A DNA stretch of 43,242 nucleotides from Kiritimatiellia bacterium (GTDB lineage: Bacteria > Verrucomicrobiota > Kiritimatiellia > RFP12 > UBA1067). Location of the stretch: assembly GCA_017450695.1 (NCBI GenBank), contig JAFSTA010000035.1, positions 1-43,242 on the forward strand, given 5' to 3'. The notes beneath the pieces are model-generated. The model was given only the letters and a program-made list of their open reading frames with translations. It did no database searches and was not told where the DNA came from. Positions 5,354 through 14,594 of this stretch are shown piece after piece (position 1 is the first letter of the stretch; every line of letters begins with the position of its first letter). The translations under genes and the position numbers were made by a program.

Positions 5354-6030
5354 AGGTGACGGCAGAGAAGATTGCGAAGATGATGGACTTGGCGGTGCTG
5401 AAACCGAACCGGACGCTGGCGGACATTCGTGCGGCGGCGGAACTTTGCGCGGAGCGCGGGATCGGATGCCTGTGCGTCCATCTGTCGGACGTGGAGGCGG
5501 CCAAGGACGAGCTGGCGAAGGCCGGCGCGGAGAAGACGCAGGTTGCCGCCGTGATCGGATTCCCGCACGGCGCGACCAGCACGAGCGTCAAGATGATGGA
5601 GGCGATCGAGGCGCTGGAAGACGGCGCGACGGAGATCGACATGGTGATGAACGTCGGCCATTTCCTCTCGCGTCGTTACCGCGAGGTTGAAGACGAACTC
5701 TGTTCGGTCGCGCAAGCGGCGCAGCTCGCCTGCGGCAAGGTCAAGGTGATTTTGGAGACGTGCCTGTTGACGCCCGCGCAAATCCGCAAGGCGTGCGAGC
5801 TGTGCGTGAAAAGCGGTGTCGATTTCGTGAAGACCTCGACCGGATTCAACGGGCAGGGGGCGACGCCGGAGGCGGTGCGCGTCATGCTCGATGCCGTGAA
5901 GGGATCGCCGGTGAAGGTCAAGGCGTCCGGCGGTATCCGCGACTGGGAAACCGCCGTGGCGTATGTGGAAATGGGTGTCGCCCGCCTGGGCGTGAGTGCG
6001 GCGAAGGAGATTTTGGATCAGGCGAAGTGA
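5350..6030 (+). CDS. deoC: Deoxyribose-phosphate aldolase
   Basis: Class I aldolase that cleaves 2-deoxyribose 5-phosphate to glyceraldehyde 3-phosphate and acetaldehyde in deoxynucleoside catabolism. The 226-residue product has all family landmarks: Asp97 in EIDMVMN, the Schiff-base lysine Lys161 in FVKTSTGF, and Lys191 in VKASGGIR. AGGAGAAG precedes the ATG, which overlaps the nadK stop by four bases. It is followed 48 bp later by the moxR start. No other deo genes are visible here, so it serves as a stand-alone catabolic enzyme within this transcript. Confidence 0.96.
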   Translation: MKVTAEKIAKMMDLAVLKPNRTLADIRAAAELCAERGIGCLCVHLSDVEAAKDELAKAGAEKTQVAAVIGFPHGATSTSVKMMEAIEALEDGATEIDMVMNVGHFLSRRYREVEDELCSVAQAAQLACGKVKVILETCLLTPAQIRKACELCVKSGVDFVKTSTGFNGQGATPEAVRVMLDAVKGSPVKVKASGGIRDWETAVAYVEMGVARLGVSAAKEILDQAK

Positions 6031-6078
6031 CGGGATTTGCCCGGAACACGCCAACCTGAACAAGGAAGGAAACGAGTC

Positions 6079-7062
6079 ATGGATTTACAGCAAGCGACAA
6101 ATCAGATTTCCGCGCAGCGGGAGACCATCGAGAAAATCCGCGCGGAGGTGAACAAGGTGATGGTGGGCCAGGAGAAGTTGATCGACCGTCTCCTGATCGG
6201 GTTGATTTCCGGCGGCCATGTGCTGTTGGAGGGTGTGCCGGGTATCGCCAAGACGACGGCGGTACGAACATTGGCGGAGACGCTGGGGTTGCAGTTCCAG
6301 CGCATTTCCTTTACGCCGGATTTGTTGCCCGCCGATGTCGTCGGCACGATGATCTACAACCCCAAGGACGCGACCTTCACGCCGAAGAAAGGTCCCGTCT
6401 TCACCAACCTGCTGCTGGCGGACGAGATCAACCGCGCTCCCGCCAAGGTGCAGAGCGCGTTGCTGGAATCGATGCAGGAGCGTCAGGTGACGATCGGCGA
6501 CAACACCTACAAACTGCCCGAGCCGTTCCTCGTGCTCGCCACGCAGAATCCGATCGAACAGGAGGGAACCTATCCCTTGCCCGAGGCGCAGACCGACCGT
6601 TTCATGTTGAAGGTCATCGTCACCACGCCGTCGATGGATGACGAGCGTCGCATCATGGCGCGGTTCACGCGCAAGACGGTGGAACACGTCTCGTCCGTGG
6701 TCACGCCGGCGGAGGTGGCGGCCCTGCGCGACACGCTGGATCAGGTCTATTGCGACGAGAAGGTGGGCGACTACATCCTCAACATCGTTTTCGCCACGCG
6801 CGAGCCGAAGAAATACAACCTGGCGCAGTTGGCGGGGAGCATCCAGTTCGGAGCCTCGCCTCGCGCGACCCTCTGCCTGAACCTCGCCGCGCGCGCGAAC
6901 GCGCTGATGCACGGGCGCGCCTACGCCACGCCGCAGGACGTGAAGGAAATCGCGCACGACGTGTTGCGTCACCGTATCCTCCTCACCTACGAGGCCGAGG
7001 CGGAAGAGATGACGACCGACAAGGTGATCGACGCGATCCTCAACGAAATTCCCGTCCCGTGA
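6079..7062 (+). CDS. MoxR-family AAA+ ATPase
   Basis: Chaperone-like AAA+ ATPase that works with von Willebrand factor A (VWA) proteins, as in Bat aerotolerance-type operons. The 327-residue product has a Walker A (GVPGIAKT, about 52-59), a Walker B followed by ADEINR, a sensor-1 ATQNP, and the C-terminal AAA lid typical of MoxR. The start at 6079 (MDLQQATNQ) is chosen because AAGGAAGG lies ten bases before it; a longer frame from a TTG at 6037 lacks such a site. Normally DUF58 follows directly. Here a restriction-modification pair separates them by about 1.8 kb, while the order of the remaining bat genes is preserved. Confidence 0.93.
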   Translation: MDLQQATNQISAQRETIEKIRAEVNKVMVGQEKLIDRLLIGLISGGHVLLEGVPGIAKTTAVRTLAETLGLQFQRISFTPDLLPADVVGTMIYNPKDATFTPKKGPVFTNLLLADEINRAPAKVQSALLESMQERQVTIGDNTYKLPEPFLVLATQNPIEQEGTYPLPEAQTDRFMLKVIVTTPSMDDERRIMARFTRKTVEHVSSVVTPAEVAALRDTLDQVYCDEKVGDYILNIVFATREPKKYNLAQLAGSIQFGASPRATLCLNLAARANALMHGRAYATPQDVKEIAHDVLRHRILLTYEAEAEEMTTDKVIDAILNEIPVP

Positions 7063-7073
7063 GGTGACGATCG

Positions 7074-7880
7074 ATGACAGCCAAGACGTTTCAGAAATTG
7101 CTTTCGGAAGAAGTCCAGTCGTATAAGTCGCTTCTGGAAACAGGCGACGGGGATTGGATCGTCAAGGGATTTATCGATGTAAAAAAAAACATTTACACGA
7201 TAACCAATGACACGAAAGTTATCTCGAAGCTGATTGAGTTGCTTCTGATTCCGAGGTTGGCTGAATTTGCTAGACAAAACGGCTTGGTGCTTGAATTGCC
7301 GTCGGCACAGAACTTTTATCCGGATTTGACATTTCGCGATGCGAAGGGGAATTTGTTTGCCGTCGATTTCAAGTCGAGTTACTACGGTTCCGATGGCAAG
7401 GTAAACGCATTGTCGCTTGGATCGTACTGGGGATATTTCCGAAATCGGGACGTCGTTAAAAACACCGATCATCCCTACGGCGCGTATCGATCACACCTTG
7501 TGCTGGGGATACTGTACAGGCAAAAAACGGTCGATTCCCGTGAAAAGAACGTGTATCCGATCCGGGAGCTTCAAGCGATCCGATCCGTTATCGGGCAGTT
7601 TCTTTTCTTCCTCCAGCCAAAGTGGAAAATCGCATCCGACAGGCCTGGAAGCGGAAATACACGAAACATAGGCGGTGTTTTAGAAATCGACAGGCTGGTT
7701 CAGGGAACCGGTCCTTTTGCCGATTTGGGAGAAGAGGTATTCGATGATTACTGGATGAATTTTTTCAATTCCGCTGACGCGCGAAATGCGGGTATTGGGA
7801 AACCGAGATACCAGAGTCTGGAAACCTACCGGAATTATCTGGCGCGGCAACAGGCACTCCGGAAGAAATTGGAGAAATGA
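7074..7880 (+). CDS. EcoRV-like type II restriction endonuclease
   Basis: Predicted to cut GATATC. From memory, the 268-residue sequence aligns with R.EcoRV along most of its length: the DTKV segment, the glutamate at 55 (EcoRV Glu45), QNFYPD with Asp84 and the VDFK catalytic pair Asp98/Lys100 (EcoRV Asp74, Asp90, Lys92), a LGSYWGYFRN segment, the base-reading R-loop SGNTRN (193-198; EcoRV SGNTTN), and the C-terminal DYWxN. All catalytic and recognition-loop residues appear intact, so an active enzyme is expected. A GAGGTGA element precedes the start only 11 bp after moxR. The genes are visibly more AT-rich than their neighbours, with different codon use, which suggests recent transfer. The stop overlaps the methyltransferase start (ATGA). 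Confidence 0.93.
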   Translation: MTAKTFQKLLSEEVQSYKSLLETGDGDWIVKGFIDVKKNIYTITNDTKVISKLIELLLIPRLAEFARQNGLVLELPSAQNFYPDLTFRDAKGNLFAVDFKSSYYGSDGKVNALSLGSYWGYFRNRDVVKNTDHPYGAYRSHLVLGILYRQKTVDSREKNVYPIRELQAIRSVIGQFLFFLQPKWKIASDRPGSGNTRNIGGVLEIDRLVQGTGPFADLGEEVFDDYWMNFFNSADARNAGIGKPRYQSLETYRNYLARQQALRKKLEK

Positions 7881-8797
7881 ATATGAATACCGTGATTCCC
7901 CCGATTAAGTCGCAAGGCATCAAGACGAAACTTGTCCCATGGATTAACGACCTCATTTATCGTTCTGGTATATCTCTTGCTGGCGGTTGGGTGGAACCTT
8001 TTTTCGGAACAGGCGTTGTAGGATTCAATTCGCCGATGAAAGGACGACGGGTTGTCGGTGATTCAAACCCTCACATCATTCGGTTTTACCAGGGAATTCA
8101 AGATGGGCGCATTACGAAAGAGAGCATGAGAAACTATCTTGAAAAAGAAGGCGGATTGTTACAAATGTCTGAGGAGAATGGGTATTCGCATTTCCGTCTT
8201 GTCAGGGATCGATTCAATGCGGAACATGGCGAGCATGATTTTATTTTCCTTTCCCGCACCGGTTTTAACGGACTGATGCGGTTTAATCGGAAGGGGGAGT
8301 GGAATGTCCCTTTCTGTAAAAAACCAAACAGGTTTTCCCGGTCATACATTTCCAAAATCTGCAACCAGGTGGAATGTACCGCGCGTGTTATTCGCGGTCA
8401 GGATTGGGAGTTTTGTAACCGCTCCTTTTTGGAGACGATTGCAATGGCTCGACCCGGCGATTTGATTTATTGCGATCCCCCGTACTTGGGGCGTTATGTT
8501 GACTATTATAACGGATGGACTGAGGAGGATGAACGGTCACTTTTTGATGCATTAAGCAAGACGAAAGCGAGATTCATCCTATCGACATGGCATCACAATG
8601 AGTTTCGCGCCAATGAAATGATCGGCAAGTATTGGGAACGGTTTCATGTGTTGACGAAGTCGCATTTCTACCATACCGGGGCAAGAATCGAAAACCGTCA
8701 TGCGATGGTCGAGGCCCTTGTTTTTAATTTTGACCTTCTGGGGCAGAGCAAACCGAATGATTTTTGTCCGGTGGAGTTGCTTCATGCTGTGGGGTAG
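7877..8797 (+). CDS. EcoRV-type N6-adenine DNA methyltransferase
   Basis: Dam-family (alpha-class) adenine methyltransferase that should protect GATATC from the adjoining nuclease. The 306-residue product has the N-terminal PPIKSQGIKTKLVP segment shared with M.EcoRV, the S-adenosylmethionine motif VEPFFGTG (39-46), the catalytic DPPY (200-203) followed by LGRYVDYYNGW, and a target-recognition middle region containing FNVPFCKKPNRF-like sequence. The first ATG overlaps the endonuclease stop. A second ATG at 7883 has better spacing to GGAG and may be the true start. As with its partner, base composition differs from the flanking bat genes. No control (C) protein or promoter of its own is evident, so expression probably relies on the host operon. 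Confidence 0.94.
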   Translation: MNMNTVIPPIKSQGIKTKLVPWINDLIYRSGISLAGGWVEPFFGTGVVGFNSPMKGRRVVGDSNPHIIRFYQGIQDGRITKESMRNYLEKEGGLLQMSEENGYSHFRLVRDRFNAEHGEHDFIFLSRTGFNGLMRFNRKGEWNVPFCKKPNRFSRSYISKICNQVECTARVIRGQDWEFCNRSFLETIAMARPGDLIYCDPPYLGRYVDYYNGWTEEDERSLFDALSKTKARFILSTWHHNEFRANEMIGKYWERFHVLTKSHFYHTGARIENRHAMVEALVFNFDLLGQSKPNDFCPVELLHAVG

Positions 8798-8853
8798 ATG
8801 TGTCGCGGGGAAAGGTTTCTTAGAGGTGCAAGTGGTTATTCAGGGACAAGGTG

Positions 8854-9732
8854 ATGATTGACACGGCAGAATTGATGAAGCAGGTCGGGAAGATTCGCAT
8901 TCTGACCAAGCGGCTGATTGACGAGCGGCTTTCCGGGGATTACCATTCGATTTTCCGAGGGCAGGGCGTGGAGTTTGACGAGGTGCGTCCCTACGTGCCG
9001 GGCGACGATGTCCGGTCGATCGACTGGAACGTGACCGCCCGCACGGGGCTGCCGCACATCAAGCGGTTCTCCGAGGAACGCGAGTTGACCGTCATTTTCC
9101 TCGTCGATGTCTCCGGTTCGCAGTCGTTCGGTTCCGCCGTCCGTTCCAAGGCGGAGCTGGCGGCGGAGATTACGGGACTGCTTGCCATGACCGCGATCCA
9201 GAACCAGGACAAGATCGGGCTGGCGCTCTTTTCCGACCGCATCGTGAAGTACGTTCCCGCCCGCAAGGGACGTACCGCCGTGACGCGGCTGGTACGCGAG
9301 GTGCTGGCCTGCGAGGAGACGCGCGAACGGACGGATATCACCGCCGCGCTCCGTTTCCTGAACCAGGTGCAGAAACGCAAGGCCGTGGTTTTCCTCGTCT
9401 CCGATTTCCAGGATTCGGGATACGAGCGCGAATTGCGCATCGCCCGGCGCCACCACGACATCATCGCCTGTCCGGTCCTCGATCCGTGCGAATGCGAGCT
9501 TCCCGATGTCGGCTTGATCGAGATGCAGGATCCGGAGACGGGCGAACTTCTTCTGGTGGATACCGCCTCCTCCGCCGTCCGCCGCGCTTTCCGCGAACAG
9601 GCCTCCGCTCGGCATCAGGAGCTGCGCGATTTCCTGAAACGCACGGGGATCGATTGCCTTCCGCTTCAGACGGACCAACCGTACATCAAGGAGGTTCGCG
9701 CCCTCTTCCGCCGCCGCGCGAGAAAGCAGTGA
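8854..9732 (+). CDS. DUF58 protein of the Bat/MoxR operon
   Basis: Cytoplasmic or membrane-associated VWA-like protein that is the usual partner of MoxR. The 292-residue product shows the DUF58 signature: FRGQGVEFDEVRPY, then GDDVRSIDWNVTAR, followed by a VWA-like strand with DVSGS (a MIDAS-like DxSxS). The ATG at 8854 follows GTG at 8851 and a GGGACAAGG element, so either codon could be used. The 56 bp between the methyltransferase stop and this start probably contain the right junction of the inserted restriction-modification pair. It is followed by a repeat-bearing spacer of 256 bp rather than the usual tight coupling. Confidence 0.92.
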   Translation: MIDTAELMKQVGKIRILTKRLIDERLSGDYHSIFRGQGVEFDEVRPYVPGDDVRSIDWNVTARTGLPHIKRFSEERELTVIFLVDVSGSQSFGSAVRSKAELAAEITGLLAMTAIQNQDKIGLALFSDRIVKYVPARKGRTAVTRLVREVLACEETRERTDITAALRFLNQVQKRKAVVFLVSDFQDSGYERELRIARRHHDIIACPVLDPCECELPDVGLIEMQDPETGELLLVDTASSAVRRAFREQASARHQELRDFLKRTGIDCLPLQTDQPYIKEVRALFRRRARKQ

Positions 9733-9988
9733 CCATGAACCTTGCCTATCGTTTAGCTTCTAGCTGTCAGCTGTCAGCCCGCCGCCCGCGCCCGTGCGGG
9801 AATACAGGTGGGGGTAAGTTTTGTTTTGCCTCGCGCGGAGACGCGGAGAATGGGAGGGGCAACGTCCTCGTTGCCCGAATTGGATCGTGTTCCGTTGCGG
9901 CCGGAATGCTTCATATGCGTAACCGGCCTGACACGCCTAACCGGCCAACTGAAAGGCAAGAACTCGGAACTCAAGCGAGGAATCTAGG
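9733..9988. repeat. Repeat-derived spacer inside the bat operon
   Basis: The gap between the DUF58 and DUF4381-like genes holds AGCTGTCAGCTGTCAGC, a degenerate CTCGCGCGGAGACGCGGAG module (about 9829, a relative of modules at 3775, 31392 and 37674), and a REP-like palindrome GGGCAACG-TCCT-CGTTGCCC at 9857-9876 (8-bp perfect stem). A short open frame from 9735 to the gap end has no recognisable protein features and is not called. Confidence 0.7.
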
Positions 9989-10966
9989 ATGAAAGTGGTT
10001 CGATTTTGCATAGTGGCCCTTGTCGCCGCATGGGTGGCGTTTGATGCCCGCGGCGAGTTTACGGCGGACTTCTCACACGGGGAAGTTTCCATTCGGTACG
10101 CGGCGACACCCGACCGCATCGATCCCGCCGTGGATACGATGTTGACGATCACGGTGGAGTCTCCCTCCGATCTGGTCGTTCGGCTTCCGGATCTTCGCGA
10201 CCGTTTCGGCGGCTTCTCCACGGCGGAGGATTTCGCGCGCGATCCCATCACCGCGAATGGGCGTACCCGTCAAGTCTTCCGTTGGCGGCTCGTTCCCAAA
10301 CCGGCGGAGGATCGCTACCGCCTCGCGCCGTTCGCCGTGCAGCTTGAGGACAAACGGACGAACCCTCCAACCCGTTCCTCTTTCGCCACCGCTCCTGTCG
10401 TCTTTCCGAAGGAGGGCGAGCGTCCTGCCGTGACGAGCGCGCCGGAGGTCGAAGTCCAGCCGGTTCACATCCGTCCGACCTTGCAGACGGTCACGCTGTG
10501 GGGACTGGCGGTTGTCGCGGGCGTCGCCCTTCTCGCCTTGGCGCTGTGGGGGCTTACGCGAATCTCCCGCAAGGTCCGCGAACACTTCCAGTCCCCGATC
10601 GAGCGCGCCCGCGAACGGTTGCAGCGTCTGTTGGACAAGGACCTGCCGAAGCGCGGGCTCTTCAAGGAGTTTTACATTGAGCTGACGATGGTGGTGCGCC
10701 GCTACATCGAAGACGCGCACGGCATCCGCGCCCCGAAGCAGACGACGGAAGAATTCCTGCAGGCGGCGGCTTCCTCCCCCTCGTTCTCCGCCGAGGTCCT
10801 CTCCCAACTCCGTACCTTCCTCGAATCCGCCGACCTGGTGAAGTTCGCGGGGCAGGAGGCGAACCCTGACATGACCGACACGGCCACGCGGCATGCGCGG
10901 GACTATCTGGAATCCGACGCGCAGATCGTGGCGGCGGAACTGGCGCAGAAAGGAGCGGCGCGATGA
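9989..10966 (+). CDS. BatD/DUF4381-like membrane protein
   Basis: Component of the MoxR/VWA membrane operon with a periplasmic beta-rich N-terminal half and a cytoplasmic C-terminal half. The 325-residue product has a signal peptide (about 1-22), an Ig-like region, one transmembrane segment near residues 168-188, and a C-terminal domain with FYIELTMVVRRYIE and GIRAPKQTTEEFL, the pattern seen in DUF4381/BatD-like proteins. GAGGAATCTAGG precedes the ATG. The last codons overlap batA (ATGA). Function is inferred from the operon: such proteins are thought to assemble with BatA and BatB. No enzymatic motif is present. Confidence 0.8.
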   Translation: MKVVRFCIVALVAAWVAFDARGEFTADFSHGEVSIRYAATPDRIDPAVDTMLTITVESPSDLVVRLPDLRDRFGGFSTAEDFARDPITANGRTRQVFRWRLVPKPAEDRYRLAPFAVQLEDKRTNPPTRSSFATAPVVFPKEGERPAVTSAPEVEVQPVHIRPTLQTVTLWGLAVVAGVALLALALWGLTRISRKVREHFQSPIERARERLQRLLDKDLPKRGLFKEFYIELTMVVRRYIEDAHGIRAPKQTTEEFLQAAASSPSFSAEVLSQLRTFLESADLVKFAGQEANPDMTDTATRHARDYLESDAQIVAAELAQKGAAR

Positions 10967-11982
10967 ACTTTGCGACACCGTTGGCATTCCTGCTTTTGAT
11001 TCCTTGGGCGGTGGCGGCCTGGCGGCTCTACCGCAAGGGAAAGCGCACGGGCGTGCTCTTTTCCGCCACGCGCGATTTGCCCGTACGCACCGCCGGTTGG
11101 CGTGTCGCCCTGACCCACGTGATCCCGCCCCTGTTCTTGGTCGGATCCCTGCTGTTGATTGTGGCCGCCGCCCGTCCGCGTTCGGTGCTGACACGCGAAC
11201 ACAAAAGCATCCAGGCGATCGCCATCGGAATGGTGGTGGACGTTTCGGGGTCGATGGAGGGACTGGACTTGACGCCGAAAGGCGCGTCCTCCTACCAGAC
11301 GCGACTGGAAGTCGTGAAAGAGACGTTCGCGAAGTTCGTCCAGAAACGCCCCGATGACTTGATCGGGCTGGTGACCTTCGGCGGATACGCCTCCACGCGC
11401 TCTCCGTTGACCGCCGACCACGCCGCCTTGCTCCATGTGCTGAAAGGCGTCGAGATCCCGTCGGGACAGTACAACAGTCAGGACGAGACGATGACGGCGA
11501 TCGGCGACGGCCTGGCCACGGCGGTCGCCCGCCTGAAGGACGCGGAACCGAAGACGCGGATCATCATCCTGCTCTCCGACGGCCTTTCGAACGCGGGCAT
11601 CATCACGCCGGAAGAGGCGACGGACGCGGCCGCAAAACTGGGGGTGCGCGTCTATACGATTGGCGTCGGTTCCAACGGACGTACCCCGTTCCGTGTGCGC
11701 GACGCATTCGGGCGCGAGGCGATCTCCTACGCGGACACGCAGTTTGACGAGGCGCAGTTGCGGTCGATCGCGACGCAGACGAACGGCCGCTATTTCGGCG
11801 TCCGAGACAACGACGGTCTGTCGGCGGCGTTGAAGGAGATCGATTCGCTGGAAAAGACGAAGATCGACCGGCAGGTGTACGACCGCTACAACGACCATTT
11901 CGTGCCGTTCCTTTTCGCCGGAGCCGCCTTGATCCTGCTGGCCCTTAGTCTGAACATCCAGTTGATTCGGAGGGTGTTATGA
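10963..11982 (+). CDS. batA: BatA-type VWA-domain membrane protein
   Basis: Membrane-anchored von Willebrand factor A domain protein of the Bat (aerotolerance) type. In the 339 residues there are two N-terminal transmembrane segments (about 6-22 and 48-68), a VWA domain starting with DVSGSMEG (MIDAS DxSxS), a conserved TFGGYA/LSDG pattern, and a C-terminal transmembrane segment (about 310-330). This matches the canonical BatA architecture. The start overlaps the preceding gene and its own stop overlaps batB by four bases, so the three are translationally coupled. The intact MIDAS residues suggest divalent-metal-dependent partner binding. Partners are probably MoxR and the BatB/C fusion next door. 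Confidence 0.92.
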   Translation: MNFATPLAFLLLIPWAVAAWRLYRKGKRTGVLFSATRDLPVRTAGWRVALTHVIPPLFLVGSLLLIVAAARPRSVLTREHKSIQAIAIGMVVDVSGSMEGLDLTPKGASSYQTRLEVVKETFAKFVQKRPDDLIGLVTFGGYASTRSPLTADHAALLHVLKGVEIPSGQYNSQDETMTAIGDGLATAVARLKDAEPKTRIIILLSDGLSNAGIITPEEATDAAAKLGVRVYTIGVGSNGRTPFRVRDAFGREAISYADTQFDEAQLRSIATQTNGRYFGVRDNDGLSAALKEIDSLEKTKIDRQVYDRYNDHFVPFLFAGAALILLALSLNIQLIRRVL

Positions 11983-14594
11983 GATTCGTCTATCCCTGGT
12001 TTTTGTTGTTTCTCTCCGTGCTGCCCTTGGTCGCCTTGCTGTGGCTGTGGCTCTTTCGCCGCTCGCAGCGGCGCCTCTCCTCGTTCATCGCGCCCGCGTT
12101 ACAGTCGAAGCTCATGCCTCCTCGTTCCACCTCGCGCTTCTACCTCCAGTACTGTCTTTCGCTGGCTGGGCTGATGCTGTTGGTCTTTGCCGTCTCCCGT
12201 CCCCAATGGGGACAGAAGGAGGAAAAGGTGCTGACGCGCGGACGGAACGTGGTGATCGCCCTCGATGTCTCCCGCTCCATGCTGGCGACGGATGTGCATC
12301 CGAACCGTCTGGAACGCGCCAAGACCGACATCATGGATTTGATCGACGATCTCGATGGCGACCGCGCCGCGCTGCTGGCATTCCGCAACAAGGGTTCGCT
12401 CGTCTGTCCGTTGACCACGGACTACGCCTTTCTGCGTCAGGCGGTGGATGGCATCTCGCCTGAGTCCGCGCCGCGCGGGGAGACCGATCTCGGTGACGCG
12501 ATCCGCAAATCGCTGGCGGCGTTCGACGCCTCCGAAGACGAGTACAATGCGATCCTGCTGATTTCCGACGGCGGCGACCTGAAGGGCGATGCGCTGAAGG
12601 GGGCGGCGGATGCCGCCGCGCGCAACATTCCGATTTTCACCGTCGGCATCGGCGATGTCGCGGGCGCGACCATTCCCGACGCGAAGGGGCACGGGGTGCA
12701 GCAGTACCAGGGGAAAGCCGTGACGACCAAACTCGAAGACAAGACGCTCTCGGCGATCGCCGCGCAATCCAACGGCCGGTATATCTCGTTGGGTACGGCG
12801 GGAACCGCGCAGACCACGCTCGGCTCGATCTACCAGAAATACCTTCGCCAGATCGCGGCGAAGGAACAGCAGGAGCAGTTGGAAAACCGCTATCAGGAAC
12901 GCTACCAGCTCTTCCTGATTCCCGCGCTCATCCTCTTCCTGCTGGCGGCCTGGTTCAGTCGCGGACGCTTGCTCGGTGCGCGTGTCCGAATGAAGACGGC
13001 GGCAGCCGCCGCTCTTGTTCTCCTCTTCGCTGGATTGGCGGAGGCGCAAGGCACAAACGGAACAGAGACGGCTGAAGCGTCGGCGGGGCAGGGGACGGCA
13101 GAGGCTTCCGCGCCCGCCGCTCCCGAGGAACCGGTTCCGCCGGGACGCGCCGGGGCGCGCGAGGCGCAGGCCATGTTGCGCGCGGGCGACTACACCAACG
13201 CGGCGGCAGCTTTCCTGTCCGCGAAACGCGGGGCGGAAACGGAGGAGGGAGAGGATTACCAGTACAACGCCGCCTACGCCTATTACGCGGCGAGCAATTA
13301 CGAGGCGGCGGCGGAATGTCTCCGCCCCCTGCTGATCTCGAAAAAGAACGGGGCGAAGGCAGGCGAGTTTCTCGGCAAGATCATGCTGGAGTTGCGTGAC
13401 CTCCCCGCCGCGACGGAACCGCAAGAGGAAGCGGGAGAACAACCGCGGCAACCCAAGCAACCGACTGAGACGCCCGAGCAGAAGCGTCTGGAAGCGTTGG
13501 AAGAGGCGGCCGAGGCCTTCCAGCGCGCCCTGCGCGACACGCCGCAGGATGAGCGACGGAACCGGAACTTGACCCGTGCGGTCTCGCCATTGGGAGAGGC
13601 GCGGAAAGCCGCGCACATCGCGCAGGTGATGAAGGCGCACGAGGGGCAGGGACCGCAACAGCTGATTCCGCAGATGCTGCAGGAGCAGCGTGCCATCCTC
13701 ACGGAAGCGCGGCAGGTCTTCACCAACGACGCCGCAACGATGATCCAGCAGTCGGAACAACTGGCAAAGCGCCAGAGCGAGAACGCGGACTTGTGGATAC
13801 CCGTCAAGCAGCAGATCGCCCAAGCCGTCACGAACGAGCAACAGCGTTTCGAGATTCTGCGCCAGATGGAGGCGACAAGTGACAGCATGAAAGGGACCGT
13901 GCTTTCGTTGCAGGATGCGAACCCGGACGCGGCGCTGGATGCCGCCGAGTCGGAACCGGCGCTCTTCCAGTTCTGGAAAGCCGTTGCGGAACCGCGCGGT
14001 CTGCTGGCGGAAGACATCTCCTGCCAGACCAACGCCATCTCCTCGCAGAATCTGCCGTACTACGAAAAGCGTGACGTGCAGGGCGAGGCGTTGCAGTTGA
14101 CGCGACTCTTCCGCGAACGGTTCCCCGACTGGGCGAAGAACTACCAACAGCAAGCCCAGCAGAACACGAACATGCCGCCCTTCACGGCGGAAGACCAGGC
14201 CAAGATCGAGAAACTGGCGGAAGAGGTGGAACGCTTGCAGCAGCCGACGGGCAAGGATATCAACGGCGATCCCGTCGTCTTCACCACGGCGAAAAAAGAG
14301 GCCTTTGAAAAACTGATCGAGATCCTGAAACTGATGCCGCCCGATCCCAACCAGCAGCAACAGCAGCAGAATCAGCAACAGCAACAACAACCGCAGCAAC
14401 AACACGAACAGCAGCAACAGCAAGAGCAGAAACAGGAACAGAAACAGGAAAAACAAGAACAGCAGCGTCCGCAAGAACCCAAAGACGTGCAGGAACTCCT
14501 GCGCCGCGCCCTCGAACGCGAAAAGGAACACGAGGAAGAAAAGAAAGAACGCATGCGCCAAGCCCCCGCCCTCCCCAGCGAAAAGGATTGGTAG
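11979..14594 (+). CDS. batB: BatB-BatC fusion: VWA domain plus TPR and Gln-rich tail
   Basis: Large 871-residue protein that joins two usually separate Bat proteins. Residues 1-330 are BatB-like: two transmembrane segments, a VWA domain with DVSRSM (MIDAS), and a third membrane segment near 308-325. A second hydrophobic stretch near 337-352 (a buried signal-like segment) precedes the BatC-like part, which has TPR-like helical repeats (about 385-450), a long helical region, a Gln-rich low-complexity tract (about 788-830) and a charged C-terminus ending EKDW, typical of BatC. The join suggests BatC is tethered in the periplasm. It is the last gene of the operon; its stop abuts a repeat block that begins within ten bases. 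Confidence 0.88.
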   Translation: MRFVYPWFLLFLSVLPLVALLWLWLFRRSQRRLSSFIAPALQSKLMPPRSTSRFYLQYCLSLAGLMLLVFAVSRPQWGQKEEKVLTRGRNVVIALDVSRSMLATDVHPNRLERAKTDIMDLIDDLDGDRAALLAFRNKGSLVCPLTTDYAFLRQAVDGISPESAPRGETDLGDAIRKSLAAFDASEDEYNAILLISDGGDLKGDALKGAADAAARNIPIFTVGIGDVAGATIPDAKGHGVQQYQGKAVTTKLEDKTLSAIAAQSNGRYISLGTAGTAQTTLGSIYQKYLRQIAAKEQQEQLENRYQERYQLFLIPALILFLLAAWFSRGRLLGARVRMKTAAAAALVLLFAGLAEAQGTNGTETAEASAGQGTAEASAPAAPEEPVPPGRAGAREAQAMLRAGDYTNAAAAFLSAKRGAETEEGEDYQYNAAYAYYAASNYEAAAECLRPLLISKKNGAKAGEFLGKIMLELRDLPAATEPQEEAGEQPRQPKQPTETPEQKRLEALEEAAEAFQRALRDTPQDERRNRNLTRAVSPLGEARKAAHIAQVMKAHEGQGPQQLIPQMLQEQRAILTEARQVFTNDAATMIQQSEQLAKRQSENADLWIPVKQQIAQAVTNEQQRFEILRQMEATSDSMKGTVLSLQDANPDAALDAAESEPALFQFWKAVAEPRGLLAEDISCQTNAISSQNLPYYEKRDVQGEALQLTRLFRERFPDWAKNYQQQAQQNTNMPPFTAEDQAKIEKLAEEVERLQQPTGKDINGDPVVFTTAKKEAFEKLIEILKLMPPDPNQQQQQQNQQQQQQPQQQHEQQQQQEQKQEQKQEKQEQQRPQEPKDVQELLRRALEREKEHEEEKKERMRQAPALPSEKDW

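What the first reader, a model, noticed from the sequence alone, without database searches (positions are those of the whole stretch)
7074..8797. Intact EcoRV-like restriction-modification pair inserted inside a Bat operon
The two genes sit, same strand and with only 11 bp upstream spacing, between moxR and DUF58, genes that are normally adjacent. They are more AT-rich than their surroundings. All catalytic (Glu55, Asp84, Asp98, Lys100) and R-loop (SGNTRN) residues of EcoRV appear conserved. Insertion without breaking operon order puts restriction-modification under control of a stress/aerotolerance transcript.
Basis: partly seen in the sequence, partly recalled or inferred. Interest (0 to 1): 0.7.

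Follow-up and report, generated by a model that had tools for sequence, protein, structure and literature searches.

The report
EcoRV-like restriction pair inside Bat operon
A Kiritimatiellae bacterium carries a complete EcoRV-like DNA-cutting and DNA-protecting gene pair neatly slotted between two operon genes that are normally neighbours; the enzymes are ordinary, but two other genera carry the same pair in exactly the same slot, and Bacteroidales relatives of the pair sit right behind gyrase B.

Summary
ORF 7074-7880 is a full-length EcoRV-family endonuclease (Pfam Endonuc-EcoRV, E 1e-87; all catalytic and nearly all base-contacting residues kept). ORF 7877-8797 is its Dam-class methyltransferase, 48% identical to M.EcoRV. 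They overlap by ATGA, start 11 bp after moxR and end 56 bp before DUF58. The genome has one copy. In 54 relatives with moxR and DUF58 on one contig, 51 have under 700 bp between them, 38 under 150 bp. So this is an insertion.

The new part: of 345 genomes of the class, 11 (own included) have any EcoRV homologue. The three with the close type (>60%) all carry it in this slot, same strand, 11-25 bp after moxR, in three genera. Elsewhere the close type is a Bacteroidales family, where 8 genomes have it 10-40 bp behind gyrB. Whether the slot was entered once or repeatedly is unresolved: a single clade is not rejected (p 0.38) but nothing supports it.

The claim of control by a stress/aerotolerance transcript is untested. 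AT-richness is typical of the family, not proof of recent arrival. GATATC is not clearly avoided. Ordinary Type II R-M by mechanism; interest lies in the repeated operon-compatible siting.

The parts
7074..7880 (+). EcoRV-family Type II restriction endonuclease, 268 aa, full length
   Evidence: PF09233 E 9.5e-88; phmmer to EcoRV PDB chains E 5e-34; catalytic E55, D84, D98, K100 and Q79-N80 and G192-S-G-N-T-R-N198 align with EcoRV; single copy in genome
7877..8797 (+). Cognate Dam-class (D12) N6-adenine methyltransferase, 306 aa as listed; start more likely ATG 7883
   Evidence: PF02086 E 7.2e-36; TIGR00571 above cut-off; 141/294 identical to M.EcoRV with DPPY and FxGTG motifs; PADLOC MTase_II E 2.7e-110; single copy in genome
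7063..7073 (+). 11-bp moxR-to-R spacer; moxR stop overlaps a Shine-Dalgarno-like GAGGTGA (about 7061-7067)
   Evidence: sequence; function inferred
7877..7880 (+). ATGA overlap of endonuclease stop and methyltransferase start (translational coupling inferred)
   Evidence: sequence; the R-then-M order with ATGA overlap or a few-bp gap recurs in most homologous pairs
6079..7062 (+). moxR-type AAA+ ATPase, left flank, native (84% to same-genus genomes)
8854..9732 (+). DUF58 protein, right flank, native (81% to same-genus genome)
8798..8853 (+). 56-bp spacer between methyltransferase and DUF58
   Evidence: no terminator-like site in it
9989..14594 (+). rest of the Bat-type operon: bat-like protein 9989-10966 (no Pfam hit), VWA protein 10963-11982, VWA/BatA-N protein 11979-14594

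Best explanation
This is a probably working Type II restriction-modification system of the EcoRV kind, most likely recognising GATATC: the endonuclease cuts unmodified GATATC in incoming DNA, and the Dam-class methyltransferase protects host sites by N6-adenine methylation. It travels as a bare two-gene cassette (R first, M second, overlapping by ATGA, no controller gene, no integrase or transposase). It sits on the coding strand directly behind the moxR stop codon, so it is most simply read from the host transcript while moxR and DUF58 stay intact. Shown: identity of both enzymes, intact reading frames and active-site residues, insertion relative to most relatives, same slot in two other genera. 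Inferred: activity, GATATC specificity, co-transcription. The cassette belongs to a family centred on Bacteroidales and has crossed phyla. Unresolved: whether the moxR slot was entered once (followed by losses or exchange through the flanking genes) or several times.
For: Family matches and residues. Single copy of both genes. Closed junction in 51 of 54 relatives, 38 under 150 bp. Native flanks: moxR 84% and DUF58 81% to same-genus genomes, no jump in similarity to the other carriers near the boundaries. Same slot, same strand in L053 (=G229) and L056 (=G012): 25 and 13 bp after moxR, 17 and 12 bp before DUF58. Closest homologues at 65-73% are Bacteroidales. In Bacteroidales the pair lies 10-40 bp behind gyrB and before a peptidase S51 gene in 8 genomes, which form one supported clade (97/90), or between lepB and ftsK in 2.
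Against: No activity or methylation data. GATATC is about as frequent as expected in 282 kb of this genome (53 seen, 60 expected) and no rarer than in the R-M-less G002 (40 of 47.5), so no footprint of long activity; absence of avoidance is reported as common for recently acquired systems (PMC4687349). Promoter use was not testable; the scan found no promoter-like site in 5900-8900, but its power is low.
Confidence: 0.85

Rival explanations
1. One ancient insertion between moxR and DUF58 in this Kiritimatiellae lineage, kept by three genera and lost precisely in all others (or passed between them by recombination through the flanking genes). This is a rival only about history, not about what the pair does.
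For: Identical slot and strand in 3 genera would be a remarkable coincidence otherwise; the AU test does not reject one clade for the three R-M pairs (p 0.38); the gyrB-linked pairs show that such a slot can be held stably across species.
Against: Presence needs 3 changes on the moxR+DUF58 tree and starred branches force 3, whereas one gain would need about seven losses (losses counted by eye). L053 and L056 are closer to each other in moxR (78%) and DUF58 (68%) than to the window, but not in R (64.6%) or M (63.7%). The three share no exclusive residue. Each R is closer to a Bacteroidales R than to the other two.
Confidence: 0.45
2. Repeated independent arrivals of Bacteroidales-type pairs at the same moxR-DUF58 junction, i.e. 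a preferred landing site.
For: R and M distances do not follow the hosts and the carriers have different nearest Bacteroidales relatives; unrelated genes occupy the junction in other relatives: two Band_7 genes in G022, six ORFs in G028, a PD-(D/E)XK_3 gene in G015, a housekeeping cluster in G002.
Against: No target duplication, no shared boundary sequence, no recombinase; most relatives have an empty junction; deep branches are poorly resolved and one clade is not rejected.
Confidence: 0.4
3. The placement is functional: restriction is deliberately coupled to the MoxR/Bat stress module.
For: Same position and orientation kept in three genera.
Against: The same cassette sits behind gyrB, behind lepB or at unrelated sites elsewhere, which points to well-expressed host genes in general rather than to Bat; no regulatory evidence.
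Confidence: 0.07
4. Assembly artefact: a foreign contig piece joined inside the Bat operon of a fragmented draft genome.
For: The genome is in 287 contigs with 3% contamination and the insert differs in GC.
Against: Two separately assembled genomes of other genera show the same arrangement with different sequences.
Confidence: 0.02

Closest known systems
EcoRV (R.EcoRV / M.EcoRV), E. coli plasmid pLG13 record NC_005019
   Same: Full-length homologous endonuclease (77/242 identical) with all catalytic residues, and homologous methyltransferase (141/294 identical)
   Different: EcoRV has a controller (HTH) gene with R and a divergently transcribed M on a mobilizable plasmid; here R and M are tandem and overlapping, without controller, in a chromosomal operon
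Bacteroidales EcoRV-type pairs (e.g. L037, L044, L052)
   Same: Same R-then-M order and tight spacing, 65-73% identical R, also found directly behind housekeeping genes such as gyrB
   Different: Different host genes at the site; none of the fetched ones lies next to moxR/DUF58
L053 (UBA3214, G229) and L056 (RGIG5050, G012)
   Same: The same pair in the same moxR-DUF58 slot and orientation
   Different: Other genera; R about 64-66% identical; no shared spacer sequence
R-before-M operons such as EcoRI and Eco29kI
   Same: Endonuclease gene precedes methyltransferase in one operon (PMC3874152)
   Different: Other enzymes; they have a known methyltransferase promoter inside the R gene, which was not detected here
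R-M systems as mobile units inserted in genomes and operons
   Same: Operons are already listed among the places where R-M genes occur (PMC3031569); complete R-M systems are said to move often autonomously or in small elements (PMC4176335)
   Different: Reported cases include long target duplications or insertion sequences; neither was found here

Membership tests
EcoRV-type Type II restriction endonuclease (PF09233) | Full-length match to the EcoRV family model | tested here: met
   E 9.5e-88, 294 bits against cut-off 25, residues 23-255 on profile 4-242 of 244
EcoRV-type Type II restriction endonuclease (PF09233) | PD-(D/E)XK active site E45, D74, D90, K92 | tested here: met
   E55, D84, D98, K100 align; invariant in all 16 aligned sequences
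EcoRV-type Type II restriction endonuclease (PF09233) | Base-contacting Q-loop and R-loop residues | tested here: met
   Q69, N70, G182, S183, G184, N185, T186, N188 conserved; Q68 is Ala and T187 is Arg here
EcoRV-type Type II restriction endonuclease (PF09233) | Cleavage at GATATC | not testable with these tools
   No biochemical data; site counts inconclusive
Dam-class (D12) N6-adenine methyltransferase cognate to EcoRV | D12 class domain, DPPY motif, family score above cut-off | tested here: met
   PF02086 E 7.2e-36; TIGR00571 152 bits against 114.85; DPPY present
Dam-class (D12) N6-adenine methyltransferase cognate to EcoRV | Methylation of GATATC in vivo | not testable with these tools
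   No long-read data
C-protein-controlled R-M system (as EcoRV on its plasmid) | Controller HTH gene next to R, M divergent | tested here: not met
   11 bp before R, 4-bp overlap with M and 56 bp after M leave no room for one
Element-borne insertion (transposon, integron, long target duplication) | Recombinase gene or flanking repeats at the boundaries | tested here: not met
   No recombinase gene in the insert; best boundary repeat is an 11-bp match, about what chance gives, inside moxR and at the DUF58 start

The most novel reading that the evidence does not exclude
Some R-M pairs spread as bare, promoter-less two-gene cassettes that repeatedly settle in the same short, co-directional gap behind particular housekeeping genes (moxR in Kiritimatiellae, gyrB in Bacteroidales), without any recombinase, using the host operon for expression; the moxR-DUF58 gap would be a true preferred landing site entered more than once.
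Probability: 0.3. Interest if true: 0.6.

Novelty: new member of a known kind. Interest (0 to 1): 0.36.

Why it matters
R-M systems turn over fast but are poorly represented on known mobile elements, so how complete pairs move is an open question (raised in PMC4176335). A cassette found in one slot in three genera, and behind gyrB in another phylum, gives a concrete, testable set of insertion sites with empty counterparts. It also shows an R-first pair placed where its dosage would depend on a host gene.

Tried and rejected
GC contrast as a sign of recent arrival: rejected, because Bacteroidales copies are also AT-rich relative to their flanks, e.g. L044 R 42.7% against 59%. GATATC avoidance as a sign of activity: inconclusive, 0.88 here, 0.84 in R-M-less G002, 0.69 in carrier G229, 0.85 in non-carrier G024. 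Target duplication: none; the 11-bp repeat GACAAGGTGAT at 7018 and 8845 is about what chance gives in 2.1 kb and the sequences around the two copies do not match. Monophyly of the three slot-linked pairs: neither rejected nor supported. Recombination through the flanks: no similarity jump near the boundaries. Phage or plasmid origin: only distant hits, best 47.6% on plasmids and 24.6% in a halovirus. A search of gyrB-S51 junctions in Bacteroidales relatives of L044 could not be run. No structure prediction was run: the sequence match to solved EcoRV structures already settles the fold. The paper by Furuta et al. 2010 is not held.

Full report
OBSERVATION. The two reading frames are as described. 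7074-7880 encodes 268 aa and 7877-8797 encodes 306 aa, both on the + strand. Pfam gives Endonuc-EcoRV (E 9.5e-88, nearly the whole profile) and MethyltransfD12 (E 7.2e-36); the left neighbour 6079-7062 is a MoxR-type AAA+ ATPase and the right neighbour 8854-9732 is DUF58, followed by VWA proteins of the Bat type. phmmer finds EcoRV structures at E 5e-34. GC is 47.6% and 46.5% for the pair and 61.7% and 62.3% for the neighbours.

RESIDUES. In an alignment with EcoRV from pLG13 and 14 homologues, EcoRV E45, D74, D90 and K92 correspond to E55, D84, D98 and K100 and are invariant. Q69 and N70 of the Q-loop and G182, S183, G184, N185, T186 and N188 of the R-loop are kept; T187 is Arg, as in the close relatives, and Q68 is Ala. 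The endonuclease is 77/242 identical to EcoRV; the methyltransferase is 141/294 identical to M.EcoRV along its whole length. That makes GATATC the most likely target, but this is inference. Homologous methyltransferases begin at the residue that corresponds to ATG 7883, so this is probably the true start.

ANATOMY. The moxR stop overlaps GAGGTGA, a plausible ribosome-binding site for R, 11 bp before its ATG; R and M overlap by ATGA; DUF58 starts 56 bp after M. No promoter-like or terminator-like site was found in the spacers (low power). There is no controller gene, in contrast to EcoRV on its plasmid, where an HTH gene accompanies R and M is divergent. Tandem R-M order with overlap or a few bp spacing is the rule in this family. 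R-first operons are known, for example EcoRI and Eco29kI, which have an extra M promoter inside R (PMC3874152). The region upstream also holds nadK and deoC directly before moxR, so the transcript need not begin at moxR.

INSERTION. Of 54 relatives with moxR and DUF58 on one contig and strand, 38 have under 150 bp between them, 13 have 153-678 bp, and three have more than 1 kb: G022 (two Band_7 genes), G028 (six ORFs almost without Pfam matches) and G002 (a housekeeping cluster including an HtrA-like protease and MnmE). In the window's genome the HtrA-like and MnmE genes lie together on contig C153, so the G002 arrangement is a rearrangement of that lineage. G001-G003 of the same genus lack the EcoRV homologue. 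Of 345 genomes of the class, 11 have one, the window's own included.

SAME SLOT IN OTHER GENERA. L053 (UBA3214; contig of G229) and L056 (RGIG5050; contig of G012) carry R and M between moxR and DUF58 on the same strand, 25 and 13 bp after moxR and 17 and 12 bp before DUF58. They belong to genera g6 and g10 of the same family; other g6 genomes have a closed junction, e.g. G024 with 10 bp. All three class members with the close type of R (>60%) are in this slot; the more distant EcoRV homologues (G013, G263, G268, G231, G089, G005) are not beside moxR or DUF58 in the stretches read.

ONE ENTRY OR SEVERAL. On a moxR+DUF58 tree of 33 genomes the three carriers need three changes, and starred branches force three; one gain would need roughly seven losses (counted by eye). 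R and M similarities do not follow the hosts: L053 and L056 are closest in moxR (78%) and DUF58 (68%) but not in R (64.6%) or M (63.7%), and each R is closer to a Bacteroidales R (73%, 72%, 69%) than to the other two. On an R+M tree of 38 rows the three are long branches among Bacteroidales; the AU test does not reject one clade (p 0.38), and no residue is shared by the three alone. I leave this open. Three unaided landings in one gap by chance are very unlikely, so either there was one entry with loss or exchange through the flanks, or the gap is preferred.

WIDER PATTERN. The 53 loci found in genome contigs are mostly Bacteroidales. None is next to moxR or DUF58 except the Kiritimatiellae ones. 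Eight Bacteroidales genomes have the pair 10-40 bp behind gyrB and before a peptidase S51 gene, and these eight form one supported clade of the R+M tree (97/90); two have it between lepB and ftsK. Several others have divergent neighbours and 200-380 bp of upstream sequence, enough for an own promoter. So the cassette family does not depend on Bat genes; it tolerates, and perhaps favours, positions behind expressed host genes.

ACTIVITY. In 282 kb of this genome GATATC occurs 53 times against 60 expected; the ratio in R-M-less G002 is 0.84, in carrier G229 0.69 and in non-carrier G024 0.85. This does not show long activity. Absence of avoidance is common for recently acquired systems (PMC4687349). 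Because sites are plentiful, an active R would require an active M.

CONCLUSION. The finding is a real, intact, ordinary Type II R-M system of EcoRV kind in an operon. R-M genes in operons are already noted in the literature (PMC3031569). The added value is the repeated use of one slot across genera and the parallel gyrB slot in another phylum. Control by stress or oxygen is not shown.

Noticed in passing
L039, L040, L043-L046, L070, L072 around 5950-6040 and 7730-7830: In eight Bacteroidales genomes the EcoRV-type pair lies between gyrB and a peptidase S51 gene, 10-40 bp behind gyrB.
   Followed up: partly
L091 2897-8992 (G002) and L090 (G003): Same-genus genome G002 has about 6 kb of housekeeping genes (methyltransferase, GDT1-rubrerythrin fusion, HtrA-like protease, MnmE, 6-phosphogluconolactonase-like, D-Tyr-tRNA deacylase) between moxR and DUF58, and G003 has the first of them behind moxR; the HtrA-like and MnmE genes are on another contig in the window's genome.
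   Followed up: partly
G000 contigs sampled (L128-L147 and window); G229 sample: GTCGAC is very rare (9 seen against 109 expected here; 11 against 133 in G229), and CCGCGG, CTCGAG and CCATGG are also rare in this genome, which suggests other long-lived restriction systems.
   Followed up: no
L101 4799-6732; L115 6319-8165: A second EcoRV subfamily (about 50% identical) in Kiritimatiellae is paired with a much more divergent D12 methyltransferase of about 355 aa, which the window's M did not detect in the tblastn search.
   Followed up: no
L095 4204-4587: In G015 a PD-(D/E)XK_3 gene sits in the same moxR-DUF58 gap, bordered by sequence reading SHRGTETQR, apparently a dispersed repeat.
   Followed up: no
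window 9733-9988: A 256-bp gap in the operon after DUF58 holds repeat-like sequence (CTTCTAGCTGTCAGCTGTCAGCC...) unlike the tight spacing elsewhere in the operon.
   Followed up: no
L052 R gene 6001-6807: Hallella seregens ATCC 51272 (a named Prevotellaceae strain) carries a close pair with the R-loop glycine 184 replaced by Glu; its specificity or activity may differ.
   Followed up: no
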